Shown: positions 3,011-55,494 of the stretch, in pieces
Position numbering within the stretch: position 1 is the stretch's first letter
How the letters are laid out: every line of letters begins with the position of its first letter
NCBI GenBank assembly: GCA_012932295.1
Contig: JAAONU010000123.1
Coordinates: 5,828,001-5,892,000, forward strand
Source of the DNA: Cyclina sinensis
Taxonomy: Eukaryota > Mollusca > Bivalvia > Venerida > Veneridae
Length of the DNA stretch: 64,000 nucleotides
Direction: 5' to 3'
The notes under the pieces: model-generated
What the model was told of the DNA's origin: nothing
The model's input: the letters and a program-made list of their open reading frames with translations, nothing else
The model's database searches: none
Made by a program: the position numbers and the translations under genes

Positions 3011-6000
3011 ATTTTAGTATTTGAAACAAGTCTTCACTAAAATGCATAAAAATATAAGAAAAATCTAATAACAGTTAATGATAAAAAGTTGCAACAATCG
3101 TAAAGCATTCTGGAATTGTAATACCATCTGAACAACTGAAAGTCCGGTGATAACATTTGATATCTCCTCTCATTCAGAATAATACCCAAAGGGACTGCAG
3201 TATTTGGCAGATAAGACCTTAACAAATTTTAGAAGTTATCATCTGCTGACTACTTCCCCTGAGAAAATTAATTTTATTTATGAAAGGCAGAACACAAAAA
3301 TAAATCCATTCTTCCTTTTAAACAACATAATTGTATTATATATGAGGATATTCAGAATGGAATGTATATCTCAGTTTCCTAAGGACACTCTAATTTGCAA
3401 ATTTCAGCTAGCTGTCAAACAGTCTTACAGGTTCTTTTTTGTCAGCTAATTATCTAATGACATCAAATGAATATATAATACTTACAAGTTAGTCTTCCCA
3501 CTGTAAGACGTCAATCAATTCTCTCAATGAGATATAAACTTAATACGATCAGATGTTACCGAAGCTAACCAAATGACAATCTCAACACGTCGGATGATTG
3601 ATATTTTTTTATGACTGATGTTCTTTACATAACAGCTGCAAGAAAAGCAATAACAAAAAAACATCAAATGTAATTATCTAGAAAATTACACCATCATAAT
3701 CATTATGTATGGTTCTAGAACACTTACTTTTCTTTATTTCTGTAGAAAGTGTCAATAAAATTGACGTCGATTACTTCTGAAGACAAAAATCTTAAATTTC
3801 CAACGGCTTTCATTCTTACATTTTCGTGTGATGTTAATAGTTTATACATTTGTTTATATACTCAATAAAGGAAATCATCAAGATACACATAAAATATTAA
3901 AGCTTTCAATTACTTTGCTCTCTGAAGTAGACAACAGAAGCGTTTGTTTTACGCACTTCCTGTCTGAAAGAATTGCCAGTCACATGCAATTTGTTGAAAT
4001 AGATGCGTTATATTTCCTTATCCAGAAAACATCTTTTCAAATTAGTGCAGCCAGTGACAAAAGCATTACTTTTTCACAACACTGCAGACAGCACGGTCTA
4101 CTAAGATAACGTCTCTAATGGTTGCGTAAATCTTGCCCTCAAATCTAAAACATTTCTAAGATACAACAACAAGGTCACATGAACTGTAAAGGACGTTTCA
4201 CATTCTAGGAAATAAAGTTAACCACCACAACATTGTTATTTTGTAGCCTTCAAATAAACAACAATCTTCAGAGATTTTTGATCCTTTTACAACAACCTCC
4301 ACGCCGTAAAAATTGATTTTGATTTCTTTTCGCACTAACTTTATGCCATTTTCTTACTAAGAAATGTTAAAATCTAAGGATCAAGTTCACATGACCATTC
4401 AGGTTTAAAGGATAACATTTCAAATCTAATTCACCAATCATAGATATTATTTTACCTTTCAAATTCAGGACAATATTTCGAGATATATTATTTTACCTCA
4501 ATATTTTGAGCCTGCATTCAATAGCTGGATCTGTAATGTCATCATGTGTTATTTGGGATCAAGAAAACCATTCAGTTTTAATGATAATGTTATACTATAT
4601 GGCTATGCATGCAGGGTTTCTTTGTTTCAACTTGTTCGAATATCTGAAAAATATATCATCCAGAATTATATAGGAATATTTTCAGAAAATATAGGACAAC
4701 AGAGAAGAAGTTGGTCTATTGCATGTTGTTTTCCATCTGTTTATATAAGTCACCGATACATGATAAGCAAAGACACTTAGATGATAATGTTTTGGACATT
4801 GCTCATTACAAATAACTCATCTTTTCATCCAAAAGGCTCAGGACCATAGATTAACCTTTGCGACAAATGTGGTTATATTACCAGTTAGAGGACCAAATTT
4901 TGGTTGTTACATTTGAACAATTCATTGCAATGTTTTACGCTTGGTTTTGGTCATTTTAGTCTCAGTGTCATTGCCATTGACCTTAGTCACCTAAAATTCC
5001 AACCCAAGGGCAAATGTCCATGAATATCTATGATATCAACACTATGGTGGAAAATAGAAAACATGTTTTAGCCTCGGTGACCTTGACCCCAGTGAACGGC
5101 AGAGATTCATGCAACGTGCCTTTGTACCAAAATATGTAAGATATCGGTCAATAAATTAAGGCCCTTTCATGAAAAGTAAAAAAAATGCTACTTTTATTTA
5201 GCCTCGGTGAGTTAGTTTTGATCCCAGGGCCAAGTTTACACTTTTAAAATCTATTTTTAGCTCCTGTGGCCGAGATCTGCTATGGACTAAAACCATTTGA
5301 ACAACTTTGACAGAGCTTTATGCAAAGAACAATACAGGCAAGTTTTATCGAATTTGTTCTTGATCTAGTGGTTTCAGAGGAGGTGTTCTTTGAGGTAATA
5401 GTGGACGGATCCTAAAAGTTCACTTGAACACTATGTGCTCAGGTGAGCTAAAAAGTATGGAAGCCATTCTCCTGTCGATGTTATGTATTCACCACAGTCT
5501 CTTTAACTATTAACCAATTAAGATGACCGACACAGACAACCTCTGTAGGTTAACATTTTAAAGGACATTCTATTTTTTGTCTAACAGTTTTTTGTTGTTG
5601 CTTTTTTTGTAGGGCGGGGGATCTTAACACAGACAAAGTAAGTAGTGATATTCACAGAATGATTCATCATTTCAGCTATTGAAGCTGTTACGTAATGAAT
5701 GTTGTTAAGTTAAATTCAAATTCTCGAAGTATATTGTTTACCCTACTAGAATGTCTATAAACAAATCGAGAATAAGACCTGAGCTCAGTACAAATAAGGA
5801 AAAAAGAAAGAAAATGTCACAACAATTAAGGCATACAGTTCCAGACAAGACGATTTTCAAAGATTAAATATTTTACAAAAAGGACCCCGAGGTGGGACTA
5901 ATTTTGACCCTAGAGACATATTTTGAACAAACTTGGTAGAATTTTATTAGACTATGCAACACATAAAATACTAAAGCTGTAAGGCACAAGGTTTCAGAAA

Positions 6001-7440
6001 ATAAGATTTTTAAGTCCTACCTTTATAAGCCTATGTAGAATCAGGTGACACAAAGCGAAAAAACGGAAATACGACATGGCGTAAATCATCCTTCATAAGT
6101 GACCCAGAGTCAGGGAAGAGAAGACCCCAATGGCATAATTAGAACAATCTTTGTAGAGTACATTTAATCGATGCTCAATGCAAAATATCTAAGGTCTAAA
6201 GGTTACTGTTTCTTATAAGAAGATTTTCAAAGATTAAATATTTTACACAAATAGGACCCCCGGGGTGGGGCTAATTTTGACCCAAGGGATAAACTTGGTA
6301 GAGGTCTAAAACACGGAGCTTCATGTTGAGTCCCTGAACTTAAAGCTTTGTGGTTTCAGACAAGCAGTTGTTATAAGATTTTCTTCTACACTTCTATGTT
6401 AAATATCTGACCCCGTGGGCGAGGTCCCATGGACATTATTTGAACAAACTTGTCAGAGGTCCATTAGACAATGCTACACACTAAACTTTAGACCTTAGGC
6501 TCAGCAGTTTTAGATTTTTAACGATTTCACTCTTAATTTTCTTTTAGTTATAAAACATGTGACCACTAAGACTGGGCCAATAGTGATCTTAGGGACATTA
6601 TATGAACAAACTTGGTAGAGGTCTACTAGATAATGCTTCATGCCAAATTTGATAACTCTAAGCCTTATGATTTCAGACAAGAAGATTTTCTTATATTCCT
6701 CTATATTTCTATGTAAAACTTGTGACGACCCGGGCGGAGCCAAAAGTGTCCTTTCGTTAACTTAAGAAAGTATTACCATGTGACTTTACTACTGTACAAA
6801 CGCACTAAGTTTCATTGCATTACACCATCTTCTCCCGACCCCTGGCCACAAAAATCCAATAAAAATAACTACGTTTGTGGGGGTTAAATGAATTTCTTAC
6901 CATTTAACTATTATATTACGTAATTTCTGTATAATCTAATACATTACAATTGTAAATTATTGTACTATGTACAAGCTGGTACTATATTCAGTCCAAACTC
7001 AGTTAATCAAATACAATGTACATGTACTTCAGTCACACAGCCCTTAAAACAGACCGTTTAATAAATCGTGTAGAATATCTGGCGAGTATTTTATAAGACA
7101 TTTTGAAATAAGTTAAAGGAATGCTTTGTGTTCTATATTGTATTATATTAAACAGTGAACTGCCTTTTGGCTAAAAAGGGTAAAGTTCCAATTAAAATGG
7201 CTAACAAAATAAGTTCTGAATTATGTAAACCAGTATTTACTTACAAATGAAACCGTTACTTGTTAGTGGGTTATGAATCAATTCAAGCAACTTATCATTA
7301 TACACAATACCAATTAAATGGAAATATAAAGTGAAATACTGATTTTTACAGCAACAAAATATATGAAATTTGAAATCCATTTGTCAAAAATAAGGCTAAA
7401 AAACAAAATATGCTATAGGTTGTACTGTCATTTAATTTTA
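3010..7440. repeat. Segmental duplication, copy 1
   Basis: This block is colinear with 7440-13270. Matched landmarks are TAACAGTTAATG near 3070 and 7770, TGGGATCAAGAAAACCATTC at 4554 and 9604, GAGCTAAAAAGTATGG at 5446 with its counterpart at about 11700, and AGAAAGTATTACCATG at 6764 and 12331. Parts of it (3120-3650 and 3840-4100) also match the SLC2A13 intron/exon region at 30520-30990 and 34930-35235. It contains no intact gene. Confidence 0.85.
3486..3640 (-). pseudogene. Decayed copy of the SLC2A13 TM8 exon (duplication copy 1)
   Basis: Shares GAGATATAAAC and TGTTACCGAAGCTAACCAAATG with the real exon 30796-30959 on the same strand. An internal deletion of about 16 bp breaks the frame. 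The splice acceptor region (ACAGCTGCAAG) is altered, and flanking intron sequence is also duplicated. Confidence 0.85.
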
Positions 7441-7975: not shown

Positions 7976-8394
7976 TTGTTTTCTTCAGTTTTGCTGCCAA
8001 TAAACGTTGCATTTTGAAATTTAAATACCTTTCAAACAAATTGATTGAGAAAATTGAAAGGCAGTTAAGTTGAAACATTCAATATCTCCTCTTATTCAGT
8101 AAGATATCCAAAGGGACTGCAGTATTTGGTAGATAAAACCTTCATAGATTTTGTTAAGTTATAAGAAATTTATCACTTACTTCCGTTCTGTTACTTCTGA
8201 AAAACGGAAGATAAGAAATTTGCAGCAAATTTGTAGTGTAGACAGCGACATTCAGAACGGAATGTATCTCAACTTCCCCGGGACTCTTATGTCTGCGAGT
8301 TTCATCTAGATGTCAAACAGTCTTGCAACTTCTCTGTTTGTCAACTCGCTTTATATCATCAAATGAATATATAAAACTTACATGTAAGTTTTCC

Positions 8395-8507
8395 CAGTGA
8401 TAGACGTCAACCAATTTTTTCACTGAGATATAAACGAAATATAACTATGTTACCAATCGGATGCTTGATATTTTTATGACTGATGTGACTAACATTATAC
8501 CTGCAAG
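8395..8507 (-). pseudogene. Decayed copy of the SLC2A13 TM8 exon (duplication copy 2)
   Basis: Aligns with 3486-3640 and, more weakly, with the real exon 30796-30959 (shared blocks agacgtc, gagatataaac, atgttacc, and acctgcaa at the acceptor). More bases are deleted than in copy 1, so it cannot encode TM8. Confidence 0.75.
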
Positions 8508-9314
8508 AAATTCACGAATGAAAAAGACATCAAGGGTTTTATTCTAGAAGATAACACCATCAGAATAAGTATTTATGGTGCTAGAACACTTCCCTAATTT
8601 TTTTCTGTAGAAATTGTCATTAAATTTAGGTCGATAATATCTGAAGACAATAGTCTTAAATTTCAAACCGATTTTATTCTTACATTTCGTGTCATTTTAA
8701 TAGTTTATACGATTGATTGACGAAGTAACCAAGATACACATGAAATATTAAAGATTTCAATTATGTTACCTTCTGAAACAGACAACATAAGCGTTTATTT
8801 TACGTACTTCATGACTAAAAGAATTGCTAATCCCATGCAATTAATTGAAATGCATGCGTTATATTTCCTTATCCAGAAAACAAGTATCAAGTAAGTGAAG
8901 ACAGCGGACAAAAACATTTCTTTTTTTACAACACTACAGACAGCACGGTCTACTTAAATAACGTATCTAATGGTTGCGTAAATATTGCCCTTAATTCCAA
9001 AACAGCTCGAAGAAACAACAGCAAGGTCGCATTAACTGTAGAGGACGTTTCACATTCTAGAAAATACTGATAACCACCTTAACATCGATTTTTTATTGCC
9101 TTCAAATAAACAACAATCTTCTGAGGTTTATGTTCCTTTTGCAACAACTTCCACGCCGTAAAATAATTAGAATGAATTTATGTTTTCGCACTAACTTTAT
9201 GCCATTCTCTTGCTAAGAAATGTTAAATTTCTGATCTCAAAACTAATGATAATGCTCACATGACCATTCATGTTTAATAAGATAACATTTAAAATCTAAT
9301 TCGCCAATCATAGA

Positions 9315-9560
9315 TATTATTTTACCTTTTAATGTTCAGGACATTATTTCGAGATATATTATCTATCTGTCAATGTTCCGGACAATATTTCGAGATATAT
9401 TGTTTACCTGTCAATGTTCAGGACAATATTTCGAGATAAACCATTCACCTGTAAATGTTCTGGGCATTATATCGAGAAATATTATTTACCAGTTAATGTT
9501 CAGAACAATATTTCGAGATATATTATTTTACCTGTCAATGTTTAGGACAATATTTCTAGC
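9315..9560. repeat. ~40-bp tandem array
   Basis: About six units built on CAATGTTCAGGACAATATTT and CGAGATATATTATTTTACCT. The matching place in duplication copy 1 (about 4446-4510) has only about 1.5 units. Confidence 0.9.
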
Positions 9561-11321
9561 CTGCATTCAATACCCGGATTTGTAAAAGTCATCATGTGTT
9601 ATTTGGGATCAAGAAAACCATTCAGTTCTAATGATAACGTTATACTATATGGCTATGCATGCAAGGTTTCTTTGTTTCTGCTTGTTTTAATATCTGGAAA
9701 ATATATCATCCATTATTATATAGAAATATTTTCAGAAAATATAGGACAACAGAGAAGAAGTAAGTCTATTGCATGCTGTTTTCCTTCTATTTGTAGAGAT
9801 CTGACAATAGAGAAATATAACACTTATACATCATTAACAAAAAGACTTATAGATTAGGATTTTTTGACATTGTTCATTACCAATAACTAGTATTTTCATC
9901 CAAAGACTCAGGACCATTGATTAACCTTTGCGACAAATAGAGGACTTATTTTTGTCAAGTTATATTTAAACAGTTTCTTGCAATGTTTTAAGCTTAGTTT
10001 TGGTGTCTTATGAGAGGGGACTTTAATACACCCGGCGTTCGTCCGTCTGTCCGTAAAATCTGGTCGATGCAATCCCTCAACAAGAGGACCATGATGGCCT
10101 TTCTTATCGCTCACTTGAGTACAGCTGCAACAACTTTCAATCGCATACCAAATATCTAGACTCCAGGTCTTGTGGTTTCTGAAAATAAGATTTTTTTAAA
10201 GCTTTACCAATGTCAGTCTATGTAAAACCAAGTGACCCTTTGGTTGGGGCCAATTTGGATTTTTTAGCCTCAGTGACCTTGACCTCCGTGACATAAAATC
10301 CAACCCAAGGGAATATGTCCATGGTACATACATACCAAATATCTAAGATATCAGTTTGACATTTTAATTATCTAAATATAGAAATCAGTCAATAAATGAA
10401 AACACAAATAGAAAAGTCTGTTTTTAGCCTTGGTAACCTTGACCCCAGTGAACGCAAGATTCATGCAACGTGCCTATATACCAAATTTCTAAGATATCGG
10501 TCAATAGACTTTTTTAAGAAAAGCAGAAAAGTCTATTTTTATTAAGCCTCGGTGACCCAGGGGCAGGGCCAATTTTTACCCTAGGGCCAAGATTTGAACA
10601 AACCTGATAGAGGGCTACTAGGTCATGATACACATCAAATATCATAAAACTAGGCTTTGTTGTTTCTTACAAGATTTTGAAATAATTTTCCTAAGCAAGT
10701 CTTTAAAAAATAAAGTGACCATTGGGGAGGGTTAATTTTGACCCCAGGAGCATAGTTTAAACAATCTTGGTAGAAAATTTCTAGATGATCCTCTATGGAA
10801 AATATCTACCCCTTTAGGGCCTTGGAATTTCATGGAAGAGTTTTCCCTACATATACCTATATAGCAGTATTTGTAGAGGACCTCTAGGTGATTCTGTATG
10901 CCAAATATCAAACCCCAAAGCATAAGATTGAAATTTACCTATATAAGCCTATATAAAATAATGTTGCAGATGGGTTGTGGCAAATTTTTACCCTAAGGCC
11001 ATGATTTGAACAAATTTGGTTGCGGTTCATTATATGATGCTTCATACCAAATATCTAAACCTTCGGAGAAGAAGACTTTTTGAAGTTTTCACTTTTATAA
11101 TCTATTTCTAGCTCCTGTGGTCGAAATCTGCAATGGACTGGGACCATTTGAACAAATTTGACAGAGCTTTGTGCAAGGAATATTACAAGCAGGTTTTATC
11201 AAATTTGTTTTAGTAGTTTCAGGAGGTTTTCTTTGAAGAAATTGTGGATGACAGACAGCATTCAAAAGCTAATGTAGCCGGGTACAGGTTTATAGGTGAT
11301 TAATTGATAAGGCAGAACCGC

Positions 11322-11395
11322 GTGGCTTGGTAGCTCAGTTGGTAGTGTCCGCCCTGTAAGTGGAAGGCCCTGGGTTCGAGTCCCGGTCGAGCCAC
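11322..11395 (+). ncRNA. tRNA-like module in the 5' LTR
   Basis: The ends GTGGCTT and GAGCCAC can pair as a 7-bp acceptor stem. It has the A-box TAGCTCAGTTGG and B-box GGTTCGAGTCC. Compared with the 3' LTR it lacks two bases after the A box, so it is unlikely to make a working tRNA. Confidence 0.75.
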
Positions 11396-11590
11396 GATAT
11401 TTCACCACCTGTTACATTTGGGGCCCAACGTAAATAACCTACGTTATAATTTGGCTACTGCTTCGGCACCTCATGAATGTTTCACAATATTCTCTGTGAC
11501 TCTGAGAATTCGGGACGAATTCTAAATTTGGAGGGGGTATATGTAGCCAGGTACAGGTTTATAGGTGATTAATCGATAAGGCAGAACTGT

Positions 11591-11666
11591 GTGGCTTGGT
11601 AGCTCAGTTGGTAGAGTGTCGGCCCTGTAAGTGGAAGGCCCTGGGTTCGAGTCCCGGTTGAGCCAC
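11591..11666 (+). ncRNA. tRNA-like module in the 3' LTR
   Basis: 76 nt with a 7-bp acceptor pairing (GTGGCTT with GAGCCAC), D-arm TAGCTCAGTTGGTAGAG and T-arm CTGGG-TTCGAGT-CCCGG. The anticodon stem pairs poorly and two extra bases sit before the 3' acceptor strand. It is therefore tRNA-derived rather than a functional tRNA. Confidence 0.75.
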
Positions 11667-13695
11667 GATTTTTCACCACCTGTTATATGAGCACTATGTA
11701 CTCGGGTAAACTAAAAAGTATGGAAGCTATGCTCACGTTGATGCTACTAACAGTGTGAAAATGAATTCATCACAGTCTCTTTATCCATCAACCAATTAAG
11801 GTGGCAGACATGGACACCCTCTGTAGATTAACACTTGGAAGGATAATTCACAAATTCAGTTTTGTCTAACAGTTTTTTTTTTGGTTTCTTAAGATAGACA
11901 AAGGTAGGAATGATATTCACAGAATCTTCAGCATTTCAGTTGTTGAGGCTGTAACGTAATGGATATTGTTAAGTTAAATGAATATTCTCAGGCAATATTG
12001 TTTACTGTACTAGAATTTCTATAGACAAATCAAGAATAGAGACCAGTGCTCAGGGCAAATAAGGAAATAAGGAAAAAAGCAAATGTCACAACAATTTTAT
12101 TTCCAAAAATATCACAACAACTTGTCACTTATGGACATTATATATATCTCTCTGGGAAAACAATAAACATTTACATAATGACTTACTGATAAAAGGTATT
12201 AAACAAAATTAGAAGTATGTCAATTTATGATAAATAAAAATCTAAAATTAAAAACAAAATCTCCCCATAAGTATCAATAAATATCTGAATATAGTTAATA
12301 TCTTAAAAAATATAATCCTTTCCTTAACTTTAGAAAGTATTACCATGGGACTTTACTACTGTACAAATACACTTAGTCCATCCCAAAATGAAGTTATTGG
12401 TGAAAACAAAAACGTTTTTCTATTTTGATTAACAGTGTCCTTGACATTCATTACTGACACCCCGAACTCAATCCCATTCTACAGTTACATAAAAAATACC
12501 TACAAATGAAGTTTCATATAGAGTGACAACCCATTCTCTTTTTATCATCGAGAAAAGGTAAAAAGTAACAGGACAGACCAGTCAACAAACACACAAATAT
12601 TCTCGTCCCATTCTCTGGCCACAGAAACAAACAACATAAAATAACTAAGTTTGGGGGGTATAATGAGTTTTACACCATTAAACTATTATATTACCTTGCA
12701 TCTATGTATAATTACATAAAGTATATACAATTGTAAATTACTGCACTGTGTACAACAAGCTGGTACCATATTCAGTCCAAATTCAGTAAATCAAATACAA
12801 TGTACATGTATTTCAATCACACAGCCCTTAAAACAGACCGTTTAATACATCAATCAGACCATCTGGGAATTATCTTAACACACATTTTGAAATAAGTTAA
12901 AGGAATGCATTGTGTTCACTGATGTATTAAACTTAACAGTGAAATATCTTTTGGCTATAAAGGGTAAAGTTCCAGTTAAAATGGCTAAGAAAATAACTTC
13001 TGAATTATGTAAACCAGTACATACAAACAAAAGAAACTGTTTGTTAATTCTTAAGTTTTAAAGAAGAATCATTTCATGCAACTTTTCTCATCATTGTGCA
13101 AAAAATACCAATTTAATGAAAACATAAAGTTACTTTATATAGCAACAATAAATTATGAATTTAGAATATCATTTATCAAACAATAAGGCTAAAACAATAT
13201 ACCGGTATGCAATAAGTTGTACTGCATTTGAATCAGTCATTTACCTATTACATATACAAATTGAAAAATGTACAAGATATATATATGTATGTAAATTTGG
13301 CATTTCTGAACACCACAAATAAAAAAGGCAGATATCTTAACATTTACTTCATCACATCTGAAGAGTTTGGTTACAGACCTAATCTACCACTTTACAATGT
13401 CTGAACTACGCCAAACTGTGGTACTACATTCACATACTTAAAACAGCTAATAAACATTAATATATTTTGGCATGGATAGCTTGTCATTGCAATATAAAGA
13501 AATACAAGAAATAGAACTATAACTAAGACAAACACACTTATAAATAGGTAAAAACTGAATATTTCTCCACAGTGGATGAACACTTCATGTTATGTACATA
13601 ACAAATTGAAGACTATGTACCAATATAAAGTGTCAATTGTTGTTTGTCATTTTTTGTATTATTATCAGCATCTGCTAAACATATGTTTATTTCAG

Positions 13696-14537: not shown

Positions 14538-14764
14538 TCACTCTGGTGAATCCAGTTCTGACTCTCGACCATCTCTGTTTAGTCCTCGGATGTGAACATA
14601 CTGTATTGTCTTTGTGTTATAATCTGAATTTGAAGAGACCCCACACCAGGGGCTGGCAAAAAGGCCTTCAACTTCCTCTAGGCTCTTCCCTTTGGTCTCT
14701 GGCAGCCATACAAACAGCAATAAGGCCCCTAGCAATGACAAACCAGCATACAACAAGAATGTCC
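14538..14764 (-). CDS. SLC2A13: SLC2A13 last coding exon (TM12 and C-terminal tail, TGA stop)
   Basis: It starts after TTTTTCAG and encodes [20 protein letters not shown] (TM12), the [12 protein letters not shown] motif, and a cytoplasmic tail of about 40 residues rich in Ser, Asp and Glu that ends at TGA (14540-14538). The tail length is similar to that of vertebrate HMIT. Confidence 0.94.
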
Positions 14765-17700
14765 CTGAAAAACAAAAACAAAAATCAAAACTGAATAGAA
14801 TCTTTGAGCAATAATCATGATTTAATGAAATTTTAAGGCAAATCAAATCTTAATACAGGTAACTGACATAGTGTTTTGAGTAGAGATAATCATAATATAT
14901 AAATACATACAAATATATAAATACTCAATTTTACAATCAAAATTACACTATCAGTTGTTCCCTACTTGCTATTGGAGCTGGAACTGAACAGACCTAGACA
15001 GACAAGGATCAATATAAAGAAGAAGGAACATAAAGTTTAGCAGCTTTACAAGCATCATACCACAGATTCTTTACTACTGAACAACTTGCTTTAACAAATG
15101 CTACAAAAAGATGCTCATTAGTTTGATTTAGAGTAAGTTTATTTTTTGCTGATATCAGAATATAAAAGGGCAACCACATATCTACCACCATAGATCACAA
15201 AACAAAGACATGGCTGAAAGAAACAGTCTCTTCCAAAGTTGTTGTTGTTTATTGGGGTTTAATGCCGATTTCAACATCTAGGTTATATCTCGGCGGTCAG
15301 TCCACCTAACCGGTTTTCCTGGATAACTGACCAGTAATTACCAATTTCTCCGCAAGTGACTGACTACTGTTCCCACTTGATCTACTCTGAATCAGCGGTG
15401 AGAGACAAATGAACATCAGACACAATGCCTGAGATCAATTTTCACAGAGAAATTTTGCCCCGCCCAGGGGTCGAACCAGGGGCTCATGGATTACTAATCC
15501 AGTGGTCTACCTATTGAGCTAAGTGGGCAGGCTTACTCTTCCAAAGAGACTGACACACAAAGACATATCTTTCTCAGTGATAATCATGGTATAACACATG
15601 AACTGGAAGAAACACACATTGGTCTCTTCTGAAGAAAGAATGTGACCATATTCCTTAATTTATTGCTTCCTCATAACTAATCTATGAAAGCCAATTGCCA
15701 CAAAATATTGACACAGGAGCAGTTAAGCCATAAAGTTCTTTGTAATTTATGGCTTTCACAAAGAAATTACTTCATTGACTGTAATAAATACTATAAGATA
15801 AAAAACAAATGTGAGAAAACATTATTTCAAACACTTAATCTTTGTAGAAGATTAAAAAATGTAGCAACCAAGATTTCTTTTTTTTTCTATAAAACAACCT
15901 CAATTGCTTTACCCAACAGATTTTAGGGAGACCTGGGAAGAAAGTGTAAGTCCATATATTAGGCAATATTAATGAACACATTTCATTACATGTCTAGATG
16001 TTCTAGATAAATGTCCTCAAATACAATAACCATAAGTAATGTATCTACTATACTGTCTGTACATATCCTGCTATATAGACTTCTGGTCTTTCAAGAATAT
16101 ATGGGGGATAAAAATGTTGAATAACTGAGGCAGAATTCTGAGAAGTTGGTTAATGGCCTCATTTCTGGGCTAAGGTTTAAAGTGCTGACTTTTAAAAGGA
16201 TATATAAAATTAGTTACATAAAAAAAAATGCTTGTAAAAACAGCAGTAACATATGTAATTCTACCCAAGATTGTTCAGGGAGTTTATATTACTGTACTCT
16301 CTTAAATTTCTGTGAATACCTTTTTATTGCAATGTTTAAATAAAAAATGGCTTGTATCTTTGCAAAAAGTCTTTGTCTTAAATTTAATCAAAATATAAAG
16401 AGGCACCGATATTCTTGGCTGAATCAATCAGAAAAAACTATCCACTTCCTTAGAATGTCAGGCAGCATTTAACTGGAAAACTCTATGTCACAACAGGCTC
16501 ATAGGTATTGTTTACTACAAATGGATTTTATTGATGGCAAGTCTGCAGAAGGAAAATCTCACAGAAAACCCAAAGGTGGTATTAAAATAAACAATGGAAA
16601 TTTTAATTCCATTTCCCAATAAACAGGACTGGTGCGCCTTATTGATTAGCTGGTCTTAAGTTGGACACTGATTATCCACAACAGAGAATTATGTTGCAGT
16701 ATCCTGTGATTAATTGTGCAGTTTCAAAAATATTCTTGTAATATAAAAAGGAGCCATAGTTTTAAGTCATGCTTGTCAAATTTAAAACAAACAAAAAATA
16801 CAAACACACATTTTTTAAAATTAAATAGTGAAATATGATTATTTTTGTAGACTTTATCTTGTTGTAAAACTGACAGCAACTATTTAAGACTACAGTATAA
16901 TTTTATTTTAACTTATAAGTACAGTTTAGAAAAATTATTTCAAGTCATATAATTGCAAATAAATGCACCCTACATGTCAAAGTTTAAAATAAAAAGGAGT
17001 AATCATGGACAGCCAAATCCCAGGCCCAAAGTTAAAAGGAATCTAGTGATTTCTGTGGTGCAACATCAGAAGTCAGCAGTAATAATTGAAGTTAAATTTA
17101 ACCATAACAAATAGTAAACCATGAACTTCATAAACAGGAAAAAGTTCAGTATTTTGTTTTAATGGTGAATAGACACATACTACTGTTGACTATCACCTAT
17201 GGTTAATAAAAAACAAATACTTGAATGCAAATGATGGAGAATGGGTAGTCTATGAACTAAAATTTAAAAAAATATGGTATCCTTTAAATGATGAAAAATG
17301 TTAAAAAATGTCTGACAACTCCCTGTAGACATATTTATTAGAAGCAGGTCCCTTAACTTACACAACAATCAACAGGATCAGTTCTAACTTGCAGTCATTT
17401 ATATATTTGCAACTTTGGTACTCATAAACTCATAACAGCTAATTTAATGACTGCTTTTGTTTTTAAGGAAGTTATTGACAGATTAAACAACAATACAGCT
17501 CAATACTGGTTTAAAAGAGGTATTTACTTTGGATAATGCCAAGATGTAAAGGCTAATAATGGGGTTCAAGGAGCCAATTAAAAATGTCATAAATCTTTTC
17601 TGATGAAGAAAAGTTTCGTGCATATTAAGTACCTACTGCATTATTATCACTGTATTGAATGTAAAACTTTATCAATTGCTTCCCTCTCAGAGGAAAATGC

Positions 17701-20700
17701 TGCAACTTGATTTTATGGAGTCTCTTGGCATATATTCTGTACCTAATATATTTAATCACTGTATAGAAAGTAAAACTTTATCAATTGCTTCCCTCTCAGA
17801 GGAAAATGCTGCAACTTGATTTTATGGAGTCTCTTGGTAAATTCTTTCAAGTAACTGTTCAGTTGAAAATATTGAAATTTAAGTCTCATTGAAGAATTTG
17901 TTGAGAAAGTATCCATTCTGTAAGCTAAATGATTGACTGCATTAATATAAATGCAGAAGATGTGGAATTTACTTTTTTTATATTTTTTTTTTATTATTTA
18001 ATTTTTTATTTTTATGGGAAATATAACAGACAGTAACTGGGGTGAACATGGCTGTATAATATATGTGTATGTGCTGTCATCATTTGTGAAAACTTTTAAC
18101 AACTTACTCATTTCAAATCGGTTTGTGCATAAATGAAATTGGTTCCCTTTTACATAAATATAGAAATGACAAATATATTGTGTTCTAATAATTACAGACC
18201 AGACTAGAAAGAAACTTGGAGCCATAATGGTTGTAAAGTTGACTTTTAGATAATAATATATTTTATGACATCGTCCAACCAGTGCTACTGTCATGTCAGA
18301 ACAAAGAGGTCTACTTATTTCTTGTTAAATACAATAAAATCTGTAAATATCACAGGCAATAGGAACATTTTTTCCTTCTTTGACAGGTGGCATCCACATG
18401 AATTAACAATAAGATTACATCACTAACTGAAACTACTATATGTCCTCTACCTATTTGCATGGCTGGTAAAACTAATAAATTTCCGAAACTGATGTGTTTC
18501 AAAAGATATTGATGTAGTTCTTGGTACCTATAGGGCACCACATGTCTTTTACGGAAAAAGTGTTTCAAAAAAGTTTCTTATCTTACAACTTTTTAATTTC
18601 TATGCTCCATTTGAACAACATTGGTGAAAATATACATGTAGTTCAATTACAAAACTGTAGGAGTTGTGCACAGATGCAATATTAAGTAAAATTAAACAAA
18701 GGGCAATAACTCCAGAAACCTGAGTGTTTGCACTGCAGCACTTGATAATGATCATTCTGTGAGAATTTGGTGAAAATCACATGGGAAACGTAGGAGCAGT
18801 TGTGTACACAAGAAATATTAAGTAAAATTAAACAAAGGCCAATAGCTCCACCAAAAATAATCAAATCGCATGAGAATATGCATTGCAGCACTTGGCAATG
18901 ATCATTCTGTGAAAAGTTGGTCAAAATCAAATGAGAATTGTAGTAAGGGTTGAGCACATCAGATAGGACAGACAGACAAACTGAATAACAGAAGGACAGT
19001 GTGACTACTATATGCCACCCTAAGGGAGCATAAAAAACCATAAAAGTTTCACTTTGAGAGTAAGAAATGAAGTTGACTTTTAAAATTCTCACAAAACCAG
19101 TCATTTATCATTCAAGTGACATCAAATTCATTAAAATATTCTCAAACCCTCTTTAGAGATACATGTATGATAAGAGTAAGGCATGAATTATGGAATTTAC
19201 TACTTTTTTCTCAGGATTTCATGAGATCTGAACATGATTGTAAAATTACTTACCAAACCTTGTCAGGTTTTCCATGAGGGTTAAGAATGTCATTGACACA
19301 ACTAGATTAAATACCCAGTTTGTAAAGGTAGATATGGAAATTGCAGTGCTTCTTGCCCACAGTGGATAGATTTCAGAATTTATTGTCCATGGCATTGGTC
19401 CCATACCTAAAATAATATCGATAAACAAACTTCTGTTTTATAGTTATCTCTTTATTCAAAATAGCATGCTGAATTTAAAACAAATCTGTCTTTCAAGTGC
19501 AATTCTGTCTAGACTACACTGGGAAAGATCTCAAATACTTTAAAAATCTTGGTCCTTCTGCCTGTCATATAAATCTGGACATCCTTTCTAGTTTTTTATT
19601 AAACATCTATGCATTTACACAGTTTTATTACACAAACATTTTTCAAGACATTACCATGCTGAATGGTGCTAAACATATTCCTTGACAAAAATTAATGAAA
19701 TTTACGAAAAGGTAAGAAGTATAACTTTGAACTTACCTGGAGCAAAGGTCACAAGGTATAAAATAAGGCCAACCATTGGCATCCACGAATATGGTGATGG
19801 ACAGTAGTCATATGCCCAGGTCAGTTTTCCTGGTAAAGCCTGCACATTACACCTCCCAGAAACGGACACCCAGGGGTTGTCTGGACTTGCTTGTAAACAC
19901 GAAGTATTTGATAAACCTGATCCATGACCATCAACAAAACAGAAGCCACATGCTAAATCCATCATGCAGTCATTACATGTACTGTAAAAAGAATGAAGTG
20001 TGAGAAGCATTTGTTATGACACAGCTTTTTTCACACAAAAAATATGACCCCAAAAAAATCAAAATCAAGTTCTTTTCTGTCTCACGAGTTTTGTAGTTCA
20101 GTCAAGGACTAACATACCCAAACGAACACTGATTATTGCTTGATAGGACACCTGCCTTATAATGGAAAATGTGCCTGAGTGTGCACAGAGCTTAATGACT
20201 TACTTAGAATACCTTTTGTCTGGTTGCAGGTAGTATCTGAAATTAATAACTTCTTGGAAATAAAATGATCAAACCTAAAATGGTTTAAATGTAAGAAACC
20301 AAGAAAAATTCTGGTGAAATCAGGTGATAGGGTTTCAAATATGTAAAGACAAAATTTCCATTTCTAGTGCAGACAAATAAATTTCTTCATTGAAAAACCA
20401 GAATGTCAAGTATTTCCTACCTGACAAAATCTAGTAATATGAAATATGGTTAAAAAGACACTAATCAAATATTACTAGACAGCCTTAAAAGACTACCGTA
20501 TATTAAATCTGTCATTCTAAACTAATGCAAATTCCCGAAATCAGACAAATACAATTTGAATGCCAGACATTGCAGTGATCCAGGCAGTTTCAAATTACAG
20601 TAATAGAGTATTAATATAAAGTATTTAAAACGGGATAAAAAGTTTCAGACAGGGATTTCTGTGAGATATTGTTACCAGACATTGAATTCAAAAGGTCTCA

Positions 20701-23700: not shown

Positions 23701-26700
23701 CACTGAAGTATATTTTCCCGCCAATACGCATGTGCGGCAAGTCTAAGTTTCTAACGAAAACGTCATTCGTCCGTTTATTGTTTCTTTATTTTTTCCATGG
23801 TCTGTCCTTTTTACTTTCTAAATATGGTAAGTCATTTAAACTTTTTTAAAGATATCATTTTAATATCACCGTATATCAAAATGTTATTTTATTAATCTAT
23901 TCTTTCATACTGGTACATGTATTTATGCAGCTTACGGTACTATGTGAGCGCAAACAAAATAAGACAAAACAATGATTTCAAACGTGTTAGAAGTTTTAAT
24001 AGACTTCAAAACGATTCTGCCTGTTTGTTTTTCGCTGTTTTGCTTTCCGATCACGTGAAGTATTTCCACACGTCGGATGCTATTTTAGGAGGCATGTTGC
24101 TGAGAATGGTTCTTATTTTTTTTAATATGAATGCTTTGGAATTCTAGATAAGAATGATTGTTTGACACATTAAAATTATAACGGTTGTTTTAGAAAATCA
24201 TTGATTGAATACATCGTTTGAGTACTCACATTTTGATTGGATATTCTTTTAGTATTGCGTTAAAACTGTTATAGGATTATTTACGGAAGTTACCGTGTAC
24301 CCCATAATTGCCATGTTTGACACTGCTAATTGATTTACAATAGGACAAGATATTCTTATATAGACTCTATAAACATAATGGATTAAGGTAATTAAAACAC
24401 AATGGGGTGTCGCATTGTATCTTAGCAGTTTGCAAGACGAATACACGGCATGCGACAATAAACCAATTAAGTGATATGTCGCAGGCAGTCAATAGACACG
24501 ATTTTGTTTAGCGTCATGAAATTCTCAAATTAATTTTGCCAGTGTTTGATTTTTTTCTATCAAAGTTAAATTTCACTGTTATTTTTATTTTGTATACAAA
24601 TATTCGTATAGAAAATTAGTATCCGAATACCAACATAGTATCCGGATATCCGAGTACTCGGATACTCGTTGACATCCCTAGTTATTTTGTCTGTCCCCCT
24701 TGATTAAAAATTCATTAATCTAGACAAAGACATCACCTCTCAACACATTTTGTTTGATTACAGTGATGAATTTCATTTAATTTTTAAAACATAAAGTCAT
24801 AGAGTTTAAAGAGTAATAAGGAAACCATTAAAATGTTGCTGATATATCATTGCAGGTGGGCAACATAATAATGTACGACTAGGAAGTCAGGTACCACAAT
24901 ATTACATTTGTACTAGGATGTTCACTTTATTCTTTCAACTTACAAATGCAACAACTTTTATTTCAAGTGGAACAAAGGTCATTTATCATTAACCACTATG
25001 AAACTTCATTATCCTCATAGTCTTTTGTGAACTGCTCCTGTTTAAGTAAACTGATGCCACGACACCTCTGAGAGTGCTAAGAAAGTACAAAGGTGTCCTA
25101 AGCAGTTCAAATAACCAAGAAAATCTTTAGCTGACAAGCTCAAAATAGTCAAAATGAGAAAGAGTTTCACCGAGAAGGAACAATAATGAGCAAAGAAATT
25201 CACCCTAACTGCAAAACAAAAGCTTGATAATTAGGTGAAAAGTAAACAAAAATTGTCTGTTATTATCAGGAAGGTCATCTACAAGTGAAGCAATCTACAA
25301 GTGAAGCAAATCAAACCAGTCAGCATATAAAATAATGACAATGTGTTGAAGGAGCAGAGCAGAGCAAACTTAGGTAACCAAAAAGTCAACTGTTCAAAGC
25401 TACAACAAATCAATCCTGTTTGCATCCTATTGGTAAGAAAGCTAACAACAATTATCTGAATATGTCAGCAAGGTCAATTAAGAGAACAGACAATCAAACC
25501 TGTCTGCAATCCTGTTGACAAGACAGCAAACCACAACTATCTGAACAATCAATAAGGAGAACAGCAAATCAAACCTGTCTGCAATCTATTGTCAAGACAG
25601 CAAACAAAAACCATCTGAAAATATCAGCAAGGCTAATTAAGAGAACAATATATCAAGCCTGTCTGCAAGCCTTTTAGCAAGACAGCAAACCACATCTATG
25701 ATCTATCTGGACATGTTAGCAAGTTCAATTAAGGGAACAACATATCAAGCCAGTCTGCAATCCTTTTAGCAAGACAGCAAACCACATCTATTTGGACATG
25801 TTAGCAAGTTCAATTAAGGGAACAACATATCAAGCCAGTCTGCAATCCTTTTAGCTAGAAAGCAAACTACAACCAACTGAACATGTCAGGAAGGTCAATT
25901 ATGAGAACAATATATCAAGCCTGTCTGCAATCCTTTTGGCAAGACAGCAAACCACATCTATTTGGACATGTTAGCAAGTTCAATTAAGGGAACAACATAT
26001 CAAGCCAGTCTGCAATCCTTTTAGCAAGAAAGCAAACTACAACCAACTGAACATGTCCGCAAGGTCAATTAAGAGAACAATATATCAAGCCTGTCTGCAA
26101 TCCTTTTGGCAAGACAACAAACCACATTTATCTGGACATGTTAGCAAGGTCAATTAAGAGAACAATATATCAACCCTGTCTGCAATCCTTTTGGCAAGAC
26201 AGCAAACCACATTTATCTGGACATGTTAGCAAGGTCAATTAAGAGAACAATATTATCAAGCCTGTCTGCAATCCTTTTAGCAAGACAGCAAACCAGATTT
26301 ATATGGACATATTAGCAAGGTCAATTAAGAGAACAATTTATCAACCCTGTCTGCAATCCTTTTAGCAAGACAGCAAACCACATCTATTTGGACATGTTTG
26401 CAAGTTCAATTAAGGGAACAACATATCAAGCCAGTCTGCAATCCTTTTAGCAAGAAAGCAAACTACAACCAACTGAACATGTCAGGAAGGTCAATTCAGA
26501 GAACAATATATCAAGCCTGTCTGCAATCCTTTTGGCAAGACAGCAAACCACATTTATCTGGACATGTTAGCAAGTTCAATTAAGGGAAAAACATATCAAG
26601 CCAGTCTGCAATCCTTTTGGCAAGAGAGCAAACCACAGCCAACTGACCATGTCAGCAAGGTCAATTAAGAGAACAACATATTAAGCCTGTCTGCAATCCT

Positions 26701-29700
26701 TTTGGCAAGGTAGCAAACCACAACCAACTGAACATGTCAGGAAGGTCAATTCAGAGAACAATATATCAAGCCTGTCTGCAATCTTTTGGCAAACCACAAC
26801 CAACTGAACATTTCAGCAAGGTCAATTAAGAGAACAGCAAATCAAACCATTCAACATATAAAATAATGACAATGTATAGTCGGAGCATTGCTGAGCAAAC
26901 GTAGGTGTAGGTTACAGAAAGCTGAAGCTACAACAAATCAATCTTGTCTGCAATCGTTCTGGCAAGACAGCAAACCACAGCTATTTGAACATGTTAGCAA
27001 GGTCAATAAAGAGAAATACATATCAAGCCTGTCTGCAATTCTTCTGGGAATACAGCAAACCACAACTATCTGAACATGTCAACAAGATCAATTAAGAGTA
27101 CAGCAAATCAATCCTGTCTGCAATCCTATTGGCAAGACAGCATGCCCATCTGCCAGCCTGCCCAACAACATCATTCTAATAACCAGTTTTCTACTTCATT
27201 ACCAGGTTAAAAACACTACAAAGATTCCTTTAAATAACTTAGCTCTTTAAAGTTATTTAGCATCCCTTTGTCTCTGAATTTACAAAATGCCTCTAGAATT
27301 TTCTATGATGCACCTTAAATCTCTATCTTATCAGTTTACTCAAAAGTATCAAAAACAGGCTGTTCATTAAAATGTAATTTAGAATGTAAAGAATGGGGCT
27401 TTGGCCTTCTTCAAGCCTTTAACAGTGTCTTAAATTTGCAATGTGATGTCACCAAATTGTAATGAAAGAAAAAATGCAGAAACCATTGAGTCTGATGCCG
27501 TCTGCATGCCCAAACAATAACATCATTTTAATAGCTGGTTTCATCATTGAAAACCTCCTTGAAAATGACTTATCATTTCCTAAGAAACTATTAAAGAGAC
27601 TGGCCTCCAGATGACAAAAAAAGAAAGTTTTCTTGTATTATAAATTTCTTGTAATATTTTTGACTAATGCTTAAAAACTAACTAACTGACAAAAAATAAG
27701 TCAGATAATCACATTTTACATTGATTTTTTTCCTTTCATAGTGCTATACCGTAACGCGACGGTATAACTATACCGAATATAATTTAAAGTAAATTACTGT
27801 TATTTCACTTGCCGCGATAGTGGTGACAGTAACAGCATTGGTAACATTTTGTTAACATGAGGGTCCAGAGTTAAGCTGAAGCGAATATATTTTTTTTGTT
27901 CTATTTTGACTTTAATAATCAGTTTTGAAGTAAAATATCATGTTATTATAATCTCACAGCATCTAGACATTTAATTTATGTAAAAAATATTTTCATATCA
28001 AATCTGGAGTACAGCCCCTTGAAATATTATATGTTTTTATACATTTATGTATTCTTTCCCTAGGAACTATTCTTCTCATGTAAGAGAATTATTTATACCT
28101 AATGCATACTTCTTATAAAATATATCATAATATATCAGAAGGAGTCAAGATTCTCTGACAGTAATGGCAGAAATAAGGAGCTGCTTGCACAATTAATTCA
28201 CGATCTGACCTTTTCCAAGATAAAGCTGGCTAAAGACATCCTCAATCAATATAAGAGATTGTTTGCAAAAAGACTTTCAAGATTTTTCTGTTAATGACTA
28301 GTGGATTACATAAAGAAAATCATTACAAGTGACTTCAAGAAAAGAGCAACATTTGTCCACAAGTATCATTCTGAGAACAATTAATTTCTCTGCCCTTATT
28401 TTCAATTATGATGTTAGGTGCCAGCTGCCTTTACATATATTTCCTTTCTTTGGCATATTCTGAATCGAAAATACTTGCACTTCTTCCATAGAAAACTGAG
28501 ATAATAGGACTTTATTTCATTACAGCTTGTTCTTTCCCCCCATCCCCCACCCCCGACCCCGCTCCCTTCCTCCACCACCCATGAACACAGACATTTACTT
28601 TTGAGACAATACTTTAAATATACAGTCCTTTCCAGTGAGTGTTAAACATAGTGTCATACAATAGCAAGAACTGAAAACCCCTACACGTGTGATCTTTCCT
28701 GAAAGAAAACAATATGTGTCTCTATCTTAAGAAGCAAATGCAGACAAAAGAATTCAGTAACTATAAAAGAGGGATATGTAAGGAACATTTCTGTAAAATT
28801 TGGTGGAAAATCACCCAGCCGTTCAGGAGAAGATATTGTTTGAATTTTTTTTCTATTTTTAGCTTTTGCAGCCCTTATGTGCAATGGAGCAGAACGGTTT
28901 GAGCAATTTTAGAAAAGGGTATTAGAAGCAACATTTCTGTCAAATTTGATTTAAAATGGCCAAGTAGTTTTCGAAGAGATGTCATTTGAAACCAAATATT
29001 GACGAAAATCTATTTTTAGCTCTGGCGGCCATTTTGTTCAATGCAGCTAAACAATTTTAGCAATTTTAAAAGAGGGCTATGTAAAGAACATTTCTGTGAA
29101 ATTTGGTGGAAAATCAATTAGCCGTTCAGGAGAAGATGTTGTTTTAAGATTTTTTTATTTTAAGCTTTTGCAGCCCTTATGTGTAATGGAGCAGAACAGT
29201 TTGGGCAATTTTAGAAACAGGCTTTAGAAGGAACATTTCTGTCAAATTTGATTTAAAATGGCCAATTTGTTTTGGAGGAGATGTCATTTGAAGCCAAATA
29301 TTGACGAAAATCTATTTTTAACTCTGGCGGCCATTTTGTTGAATGGAATGGAACCATTTTAGCAATTTTAAAAGAGGGCTACGTAAGGAACATTTCTGTG
29401 AAATTTGGTGGAAAATCACCAGCAGTTCAGGAGGAAATGTTGTTTTAATTTTTTGTCTATTTTTAGCTTTTGCTGCCCTTATGTGCAATGGAGCAGAATG
29501 GTTTGAGCAATTTTAAAAAAGGGCAATATAAGGAACATTTCTGTAAAGTTTGGTTAAAAATAGCTTTGTGGTTTAGGAGGAGATGTCATTTAAAGTAAAA
29601 TGTTGAGCATTTGATCAGGTGAGCTAAAAATGTGACCCCTGGTGCAGGAGCAAATTATGACCCCTGGGGCAGTGTTTGAAAAATCTTGATAGCTGTCCAC

Positions 29701-50079: not shown

Positions 50080-50550
50080 TGTAACAGTTGGTGAAAATAT
50101 CGTGGCCTAACCAGTACTGGAATCCAGGGCCTTCTGCTTACAGGACGATCAACTAGCCAACCACCAACTGAGCTACCAATTCACACAGTCTATTACATTT
50201 TTATTTATCACCAGTATACCTGTATCTGGCTGTATATAAGCTCTCCAAATTTATAATTCATTAAAAATTCTTAGAGGCAGAGCAAAATCTTTTTAAAGTG
50301 TTCATTTGAGGTGTCAAGCTGTAGCCATTATACCATATGATATTTACGTTGGGAGCGAACTGTAACAGGTGGTAAAACTAGAATGCCCATGGGCAGCATC
50401 TTGAGCCCGCCAATGGAAAGGACAAGCGGGCTTGACAAAAATTGTGGCCCGACCACAACTCAAACCCTGAGCCTTCCACTTACAGGGCTGACACTCTACC
50501 AACTGAGCTACCAAACCACATGGTCTGCTGCCTTTCAATTCATCTGAACA
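50080..50550 (-). mobile_element. Second, older TRIM element with tRNA-like LTRs
   Basis: On the minus strand the 5' LTR (50550-50361) ends ACCACCTGTTACA. It is followed by CTCCCAACGTAAAT (compare GCCCAACGTAAAT in 11273-11687), an interior with ATAATGGCTACAGCTT, a purine stretch TTTGGAGAG, then a 3' LTR (50234-50080) ending CCAACTGTTACA. Both LTRs hold TTGGTAGCTCAGTTGG and the AGGCC(C)..GGNTTNNAGT B-box region. The LTRs are strongly diverged from each other, and the 5' LTR has about 40 extra bases. The 5' boundary is uncertain. Confidence 0.8.
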
Positions 50551-51182
50551 ATATACCTTATTCCCCTTTCCCAGCTCCCTCCTCCAGTGGCTTCTAACAC
50601 CTTGAACACTAAAATACAGATCTATCAGGCAGAATGAGGAAATAATAACTTAAGCAAATGCATCATATTTCACTTCATTCTGTGACAATAACTTCTCATA
50701 ATTGGAATTCATACAAGCTATATGGCTTTTCTAACAAATAAAATTGCAATAATTACTATCTTCAAAGAAAGAAGATGATAGTTTGCAGATTATCTTTTAT
50801 CTTTTATAATAACTGTTCTACAGATGGTCCGGATTGTTTAATTCTGATGCATAATTTCTAACAGTTTTCTAAACAAAAAAAAAAGGTAACTATTTCCCAA
50901 TTTCCTTTTTGATCAAACATTTTTCACTGCTTACAAACTTAAGTGTCTTCGAATTACAGATTTTTGTTAACAACAACTTTATGGGATTCCAAAAAGTGCT
51001 GAAAACTAAAAAGCATAAAAGTTTTCCTTCTGTAATGCTAACAAGAATGATTATATGGATCAAATATTTTTACGAGTGCACCTTATAAAGTAAAGATTTT
51101 CTGACAACAAACAAGGTTAGTCTGAATAAAACAGACAGTATTTACCTAAATGCTGATAAAAGTGCTATATGATGTCATGGCC

Positions 51183-52139: not shown

Positions 52140-52665
52140 TTCATATAACCAATAACTAAAGATTCATTAATCCATTAACCATGAATTCATTGATTCATAA
52201 ACCAATCATTCACTAACCCATTAACTAAGGATTTCTAGATCTGTTAACAAAGGATTCATTGATCCATTATCTAAGGACTCACTGAACTGTTAACCAAAGA
52301 TTCATTTCACCATTAACTAAGGATTCACTGATCCATTAACCAAGGATTTCTAGATCTGTTAACCAAGGATTCATTGATCCATTAACTAAGGATTAACCGA
52401 ACTGTTAACCAAGGATTCATTGATCCATAAACCAATCATTCACTAACCCATTAACTAAGGATTTCTAGATCTGTTAACAAAGGATTCATTGATCCATTAT
52501 CTAAGGACTCACTGAACTGTTAACCAAAGATTCATTTCACCATTAACTAAGGATTCACTGATCCATTAACCAAGGATTTCTAGATCTGTTAACCAAGGAT
52601 TCATTGATCCATTAACTAAGGATTAACCGAACTGTTAACCAAGGATTCATTGATCCATTTACAAA
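52140..52665. repeat. Short-unit array with an exact 230-bp duplication
   Basis: ~21-24-bp units of the type GGATTCATTGATCCATTAAC(C/T)AA. A 230-bp block starting ACCAATCATTCACTAACCCA at 52201 recurs almost unchanged from 52431, showing a recent higher-order duplication. Confidence 0.95.
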
Positions 52666-54875: not shown

Positions 54876-55494
54876 TTAACAAACAGAATGTTTCCGTAAT
54901 CTTAATAAAACACCAAGAATGTCAAGCAAATATTTATTACTGCTCCAAATTCAGCAGAGGAATTACCAACAAACACTAAAAGGATTATTAATAGTTGCAA
55001 AATTAGATTAACATGATTATAAGACAAAATGAAAAAAAAACTAGTTGCTCAGAACTGCTAATTTGTAAAGAATGACAAATTTTCTTAGAAACAACAAATT
55101 GGCTCACTTATTTCTAAATACAGATGCCATGATTGATAATAGTCTTTCATGTACCAAACTGAACGTAGTGACGTCAGTGTATGAACCAGTGGCATGAAAA
55201 CAAATGGCAGAAGTTGATTGTCCTAAAAAAAAGCTCAATAAGGGAATGACAAATGTCCGAGTTAATTGGAAGAAAAAGATGTTGGAAGAAACAAAATGAC
55301 AAATAGTAGGACATAAATCTTTCAATGAAGGTCGTATATCAAACAATTGCGTTAACTTGAACTTGACAATGAAGAAAGATTTCTGATGTACAAAATGGTA
55401 AAAATATAACAACAAACTTTGCACTAAGACTCGCTGTACTGCATGTTTTTACTATAATATACAGTCGAACTTATCTGGAGCGACCTTAGAAAAT

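What the first reader, a model, noticed from the sequence alone, without database searches (positions are those of the whole stretch)
11273..11687. Miniature LTR retrotransposon whose LTRs carry a tRNA-like pol III module
The sequence shows TG...CA direct repeats, a primer-site-like start (TGGGGCCCAACG), a polypurine tract and no coding capacity. Each ~145-bp LTR embeds a ~75-nt tRNA-like unit with A and B boxes. Plant Cassandra elements do the same with 5S rRNA. Here a tRNA appears to have been captured, which would give the element a pol III promoter in each LTR.
Basis: partly seen in the sequence, partly recalled or inferred. Interest (0 to 1): 0.85.

Follow-up and report, generated by a model that had tools for sequence, protein, structure and literature searches.

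The report
Scallop mini-retrotransposon with tRNA-bearing LTRs
This is a real, recently active miniature jumping element, probably from a scallop, whose two end repeats each contain a tRNA-like gene that probably drives its transcription; the kind was described in 2024 under the name Helenus, so the find is sound but not new.

Summary
Window 11273-11687 is a 415-bp non-coding element (LTR 144, internal 125, LTR 146 bp); each LTR carries a tRNA-Thr(TGT)-like unit. 26 of 39 best-matching loci have exact 4-bp target duplications, against 23 of 1482 mismatched pairs. 28 of 33 two-LTR copies have a perfect 12-nt tRNA-Lys1,2 primer site. 3 of 8 single LTRs keep a duplication. 9 of 33 copies have identical LTRs. 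So it is not a SINE dimer. It fits Helenus (Kojima 2024, PMC10886601): tRNA-bearing TRIMs with 4-bp duplications in animals, listed for bivalves including P. maximus.

Added here: a T5 tract follows the tRNA unit in 33 of 33 3' LTRs; AATAAA and ATTAAA are absent from 66 LTRs; pre-insertion variants avoid the tRNA unit (14 of 93, against 114 of 270 post-insertion differences), though not significantly if each variant counts once. A sister family shares the primer block but has no detectable tRNA. Pol III transcription is inferred, not shown. No autonomous partner was found.

The parts
11273..11416 (+). 5' LTR, 144 bp, TG..CA
11324..11395 (+). tRNA-Thr(TGT)-like unit of the 5' LTR (2 bp shorter in the D loop than the 3' unit)
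   Evidence: ARAGORN; Rfam 45.4 bits; alignment
11331..11342 (+). A box TAGCTCAGTTGG, 5' LTR
   Evidence: sequence; box pattern in 57 of 66 LTRs, (box consensus recalled)
11373..11383 (+). B box GGTTCGAGTCC, 5' LTR
   Evidence: sequence; box pattern in 61 of 66 LTRs, (box consensus recalled)
11417..11541 (+). internal region, 125 bp, non-coding
11419..11430 (+). primer binding site, 11 of 12 to the tRNA-Lys1,2 site
   Evidence: perfect in 28 of 33 copies
11530..11537 (+). polypurine tract GGAGGGGG
   Evidence: in 29 of 33 copies
11542..11687 (+). 3' LTR, 146 bp (ends TGTTATA; the other 32 of the 33 two-LTR copies end TGTTACA)
11593..11666 (+). tRNA-Thr(TGT)-like unit of the 3' LTR
   Evidence: ARAGORN; Rfam 49.5 bits
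11600..11611 (+). A box, 3' LTR
   Evidence: sequence
11644..11654 (+). B box, 3' LTR
   Evidence: sequence
11669..11673 (+). TTTTT, candidate pol III terminator just after the tRNA unit; the only T4+ run of this copy
   Evidence: present in 33 of 33 3' LTRs
5232..5827 (+). diverged paralogue of both flanks without the element (empty site near 5405-5425)
50080..50590 (-). second, old and decayed copy of the same family (5' LTR start uncertain, extra insertion in its 5' LTR)

Best explanation
[quoted passage not shown] Shown: LTR-internal-LTR anatomy, integrase-type 4-bp target duplications, a tRNA-Lys primer site, a purine tract, single LTRs, recent activity, and no gag or pol. Inferred: pol III binds the A and B boxes of the tRNA unit in the 5' LTR and starts just upstream of the unit. 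It often stops at the T5 right after the unit, giving a short pre-tRNA-like RNA, and sometimes reads through to the T5 of the 3' LTR. The full RNA, about 360 nt, then carries the tRNA unit as its terminal repeat R at both ends, with a 14-nt U5 and a U3 of about 40 nt. It is packaged and copied by the proteins of an autonomous element, probably Gypsy-type, that uses a tRNA-Lys primer, and integrated by that element's integrase.
For: 4-bp duplications in 26 of 39 loci, control 23 of 1482; 12 of 18 further two-LTR copies. PBS perfect in 28 of 33. 9 of 33 copies with identical LTRs; 64 of 66 LTRs called tRNA-Thr(tgt). Of 6 copies with identical LTRs checked, 5 score 62.5 bits as tRNA in both LTRs and one 53.4. 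T5 after the tRNA unit in 31 of 33 5' LTRs and 33 of 33 3' LTRs; another T4+ run in 1 of 33. AATAAA or ATTAAA in 0 of 66 LTRs. In 51 two-LTR copies, variants carried by both LTRs avoid the tRNA unit (14 of 93) more than differences between the two LTRs do (114 of 270), Fisher p 1.3e-6 on element-sites; 14 of 89 against 102 of 248, p 8.5e-6, after dropping two duplicated loci. Single LTRs at 8 of 20 loci, 3 with duplications.
Against: No transcript data. Counted once each, distinct shared variants give 13 in the tRNA unit and 28 outside, p 0.23 (0.30), so the selection signal rests on recurring, related variants; recurring ones alone are 1 in the tRNA unit and 12 upstream, p 0.017, or 1 and 10 without duplicated loci, p 0.054. 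410 of 2000 shuffles of the window copy also lack TTTT. GATAAA, a weak poly(A) variant, is in 21 of 33 5' and 20 of 33 3' LTRs. A T5 in the 5' LTR should stop many transcripts early. The window copy has no target duplication and only TTT in its 5' LTR. 13 of 39 first-set loci lack an exact 4-bp duplication. No autonomous partner was identified. The six sister-family copies listed have a TTTT about 50 nt into the LTR, at the start of the tRNA-like part.
Confidence: 0.83

Rival explanations
1. The element is a genuine TRIM but is transcribed by pol II; the tRNA unit is a passenger captured with a SINE and has no role.
For: A TATA-like TTTATAG is in 28 of 33 3' LTRs and GATAAA in 20 of 33. A sister family with the same primer block has no tRNA that ARAGORN or Rfam (three loci) can see. 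A terminator in the 5' LTR is awkward for pol III. With each variant counted once the avoidance of the tRNA unit is not significant.
Against: 0 of 66 LTRs hold AATAAA or ATTAAA. Pre-insertion variants avoid the tRNA unit when counted per copy. The sister family keeps a B-box-like AGTTCAAACCC and a run of 4 to 6 T after it in 11 of 12 LTRs of six copies.
Confidence: 0.12
2. The LTRs are maintained because they make a working tRNA-Thr(UGU); the element multiplies tRNA genes.
For: The one alignment printed for a young copy has no non-standard pair, 62.5 bits; 64 of 66 LTRs keep the TGT anticodon call. Kojima notes seven bivalve families that could encode tRNA-Thr.
Against: A promoter alone explains the same conservation; older copies such as those in the window decay. 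[quoted passage not shown] No identity-element or charging test was made.
Confidence: 0.04
3. Tandem tRNA pseudogenes or a SINE dimer.
For: Two tRNA-like units in direct orientation; a SINE-like tRNA unit is in the window (15456-15528).
Against: TG..CA ends with 4-bp duplications at the LTR ends, PBS and purine tract beside the LTRs, single LTRs with duplications.
Confidence: 0.01

Closest known systems
Helenus (TRIMp3; Kojima 2024, PMC10886601)
   Same: [quoted passage not shown] reported from five orders of pteriomorphian bivalves, including Pecten maximus; tRNA-Lys is among the bivalve primers and seven bivalve families could encode tRNA-Thr.
   Different: No structural difference found. 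The published consensus sequences are in Repbase and a supplement that I could not read, so identity with a named family is untested. The T5, poly(A) and shared-versus-private variant results are not in the parts of the paper I read.
Cassandra (plant TRIM with 5S rRNA in its LTRs; PMC7215508, passages)
   Same: Pol III promoter and terminator inside each LTR of a miniature LTR element; tandem arrays.
   Different: 5S rRNA instead of tRNA; different PBS; plants. PMC10886601 calls it the only validated TRIMp3.
biv-TRIM (bivalve TRIM, PMC6934838)
   Same: Bivalve TRIM with two terminal repeats, purine tract, solo repeats and tandem arrays.
   Different: 202-218 bp repeats, 77-80 bp internal domain, no unambiguous PBS, and no tRNA unit in the repeats mentioned in the part I read.
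Ajax (nemertean TRIM with a 5S promoter, PMC10886601)
   Same: Small-RNA promoter inside the LTR of a TRIM.
   Different: Partial 5S rRNA, 5-bp duplications, tRNA-Leu primer site.

Membership tests
Helenus | Two LTRs with a tRNA-derived sequence in each | tested here: met
   64 of 66 LTRs tRNA-Thr(tgt), one tRNA-Ile(tat), one none
Helenus | TRIM size (under 1000 bp in the screen; 311-1263 bp among reported families) and no coding capacity | tested here: met
   414-422 bp in 33 two-LTR copies; longest ATG ORF median 22 aa, maximum 108 aa, not searched against families
Helenus | PBS and purine tract between the LTRs | tested here: met
   PBS perfect in 28 of 33; GGAGGGGG in 29 of 33
Helenus | 4-bp target duplications in animals | tested here: met
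   26 of 39, control 23 of 1482; 12 of 18 further copies. The window copy itself has none
Helenus | PBS shared with an autonomous Gypsy element | tested here: inconclusive
   tRNA-Lys1,2 site met; no Gypsy partner identified; the integrase search did not complete
Helenus | Match to a published Helenus consensus | not tested
   Repbase and the supplement were not available here
Helenus / TRIMp3 | Transcription by RNA polymerase III | not testable with these tools
   needs RNA or ChIP data; the paper itself lists it as unvalidated for Helenus
tRNA-derived SINE | No LTRs, PBS or 4-bp integrase-type duplications | tested here: not met
biv-TRIM | 202-218 bp repeats, 77-80 bp internal domain | tested here: not met
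   144-152 bp and 124-129 bp in the 33 two-LTR copies; biv-TRIM figures

The most novel reading that the evidence does not exclude
Selection in the transposing lineage keeps the whole tRNA-Thr cloverleaf, not only the A and B boxes. Each LTR would then be a working pol III gene that mostly makes a short tRNA-Thr(UGU)-like RNA ending at T5, with rare read-through giving the element's genome, and the cloverleaf in R would itself act in reverse transcription, packaging or end formation. Each insertion would add two potential tRNA genes to the host.
Probability: 0.13. Interest if true: 0.6.

Novelty: already known. Interest (0 to 1): 0.3.

Why it matters
It confirms by an independent route that LTR retrotransposons of animals carry a tRNA-like gene as a likely internal promoter. 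It also gives a young family with hundreds of LTR copies in which pol III transcription of an LTR element could be tested. Such families can inflate tRNA gene counts in bivalve genomes and should be masked before tRNA annotation.

Tried and rejected
Rejected: SINE dimer and tandem tRNA pseudogenes. Rejected: recombination between two elements as the cause of the missing duplication in the window copy, because both flanks match the same paralogous site; a small loss at the right junction is more likely. Led nowhere: exact-pattern scans of viral contigs and genome contigs (0 hits) and a distant BLAST of plasmids (no match); by their descriptions these collections are not of animal genomes. A thermodynamic fold of one unit is no better than shuffles (z -0.24); the covariance model scores it as tRNA. 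L081 looked like a possible autonomous partner because a different sequence precedes its primer block, but its six ORFs of 100 aa or more did not look like gag or pol to me (read by eye, no family search) and no second LTR was found. 12 of the 59 sites, with the spacer AA before the primer site, remain possible partners, not inspected.

Full report
What is there. Window 11273-11687 holds two direct repeats of 144 and 146 bp around 125 bp. Each repeat contains a tRNA-Thr(TGT)-like unit (ARAGORN; Rfam 45.4 and 49.5 bits, gathering score 29). Two bases after LTR1 comes TGGGGCCCAACG, 11 of 12 to TGGCGCCCAACG; that TGGCGCCCAACGTGGGGC is the Lys1,2 site I saw in a passage of PMC1084362. GGAGGGGG and TATA precede LTR2. 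A second copy on the minus strand at about 50080-50590 is about 25% diverged from the family; among 40 of 1237 candidates scored, no other place matches it at more than 75% over its longer part.

Insertion. A diverged paralogue of both flanks lies at 5232-5405 and 5425-5827, 82% and 74% identical, and lacks the element. The match resumes within a few bases of the LTR ends, so the 415 bp went in as a unit. The window copy shows no target duplication (ctaa, tgag); some bases at the right junction seem to be lost, and LTR2 ends TA instead of CA. With 5.6% it has the most different LTR pair of the first set of 33; of the later 51 copies, eight are more different.

Host. The window's genome is held: 902,855,857 bases, 154 contigs. 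I infer Pecten maximus or a close scallop: published figures (19 chromosomes, 918 Mb, N90 32,483,354; passages of PMC7191990) resemble the contigs here (C18 32,480,536), but C1 at 71.3 Mb is longer than the published maximum of 60.1 Mb. No gene-level test of the species was made.

Genome copies. One search scored 40 of 1070 first-look candidates and gave 49 matches: the window and 48 at 39 other loci, all of which I fetched. These are the best matches to the window copy, so intact and young copies are over-represented. 26 of 39 have an exact 4-bp duplication at the outer LTR ends, one more a 5-bp one; mismatched left-right pairs give 23 of 1482. Some loci share flanks (L014 and L016), so they are not all independent. 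Seven of the 39 hold 3 or 4 LTR matches. The other 32 and the window copy make the set of 33.

In these 33, all 5' LTRs start TGTAGCC, and 32 of the 33 3' LTRs end TGTTACA. The primer site is perfect in 28 and GGAGGGGG is present in 29. LTR pairs are identical in 9, median difference 1.4%. Of 66 LTRs, ARAGORN tRNA-Thr(tgt), one tRNA-Ile(tat), one none. Six copies with identical LTRs score 62.5 bits in both LTRs (five) or 53.4 (one); the one alignment printed shows no non-standard pair.

Genome-wide, an LTR pattern with up to 3 mismatches hits 641 times and an internal pattern 302 times, reversed controls 0. From the 100 LTR places listed I fetched 20 on C1-C3 without an exact partner nearby. 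8 are single LTRs without internal region, some of them truncated; 3 of the 8 have a 4-bp duplication.

Evidence for a pol III life style. The box A pattern is met in 57 and box B in 61 of 66 LTRs (consensus recalled). A T5 follows the tRNA unit in 31 of 33 5' LTRs (not in the window copy and L041) and in 33 of 33 3' LTRs, and only L032 has another T run of 4 or more. Since 410 of 2000 shuffles of the window copy also lack TTTT, the absence of other runs is weak evidence. AATAAA and ATTAAA are absent from all 66 LTRs, but GATAAA, a weak variant, is in 41 of 66. The layout resembles what PMC10886601 says of Cassandra transcripts, which start in the 5' LTR and stop in the 3' LTR (passage).

Selection. 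Both LTRs of a new copy are identical, so a variant found in both predates insertion and a difference between them postdates it. In the 33 copies, pre-insertion variants fall in the tRNA unit 7 of 45 times, post-insertion differences 36 of 73, p 1.9e-4; distinct variants 7 of 19, p 0.44. With 18 more copies, those of 33 further loci that passed a two-LTR filter, the figures are 14 of 93 and 114 of 270, p 1.3e-6; distinct variants 13 of 41, p 0.23. Without two duplicated loci: 14 of 89 and 102 of 248, p 8.5e-6; distinct p 0.30. Of 13 variants recurring in two or more copies, 12 are in the 51 bases upstream and 1 in the tRNA unit (L066 and L095), p 0.017; without duplicated loci 10 and 1, p 0.054. 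I read this as suggestive, not proven, purifying selection on the module while it transposes.

Sister family. The primer block TGGCGCCCAACGTAAATAAC occurs 539 times with up to one mismatch, reversed control 0. Of 20 exact sites on C1 and C2 that I fetched (of 100 listed), 4 are the window's family (L068, L076, L077, L087), one is unexplained (L081), and the other 15 look like a second TRIM with an LTR of about 143 bp that starts TGTAGCAG. A simple script read 4-bp duplications in 6 of 9 of these; in the three failures it had found no outer end (L078, L085) or taken a stray one (L084). The family has a B-box-like AGTTCAAACCC and a partial A box, and 4 to 6 T after it in 11 of 12 LTRs of six copies, but ARAGORN finds no tRNA in any of the 15 and Rfam none in the three tried. 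So the cloverleaf can be lost while the LTR element goes on. A TTTT near the start of its tRNA-like part in those six copies speaks against efficient pol III transcription there.

Literature. Of PMC10886601 I read the abstract, Results, Discussion, legends and tables, one Methods section and passages. It defines Helenus as TRIMs with tRNA-derived LTRs, reports 51 families in pteriomorphian bivalves, lists Pecten maximus, gives 4-bp duplications for animals, tRNA-Lys among bivalve primers, and seven bivalve families that could encode tRNA-Thr. It says pol III function is not validated for Helenus. A search for papers holding Helenus, TRIM, tRNA and LTR retrotransposon found only that paper. For PMC6934838 I read the abstract and part 1 of 2 of the Results; for PMC7215508, PMC7191990, PMC10294476, PMC1084362 and PMC3386198, passages only.

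Verdict. I rate the finding as already known; whether this very family has a Repbase entry is untested. Modest added value comes from the terminator, poly(A) and variant results.

Noticed in passing
window 15456-15528 (-), tail to about 15240: A tRNA-like unit (Rfam 33.1 bits) followed by a body ending in AACAACAACAAC: looks like a tRNA-derived SINE.
   Followed up: no
window 50080-50590 (-): Old copy of the same element with an insertion of roughly 55 bp, partly palindromic (AGCCCGC..GCGGGCT), inside its 5' LTR.
   Followed up: partly
L069-L075, L078-L080, L082-L086: Second TRIM family sharing the primer block; no tRNA detected, B-box-like motif and T run kept.
   Followed up: partly
G000 sites with TTACAAATGGCGCCCAACGT (12 of 59 sites, two of them 4864 bp apart on C1): Primer sites with a spacer unlike either TRIM family; possible autonomous partner using tRNA-Lys.
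   Followed up: no
L009, L026, L027, L028, L037, L039, L043: Loci with 3 or 4 LTR matches, probably tandem arrays as known for Cassandra and biv-TRIM.
   Followed up: partly
window 3152-7433 and 8074-13229: Diverged direct duplication (pieces about 74-82% identical) that supplies the empty site.
   Followed up: partly
window 55494-56032 and 56730-57264: Inverted repeat of about 539 bp, 96.5% identical.
   Followed up: no
window 25402-27142, 31697-32988, 37406-38291, 52149-52659, 63094-63415: Tandem repeat arrays with listed periods from 43 to 441 bp.
   Followed up: no
window 14538-20013 (-): Exons of a sugar-transporter gene (Pfam PF00083: one piece above the curated cut-off, one just below it); SLC2A13-like by my recall.
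   Followed up: partly
L081 6626-8339 (-): ORFs that look like a pogo-type DNA transposon transposase, by eye.
   Followed up: no
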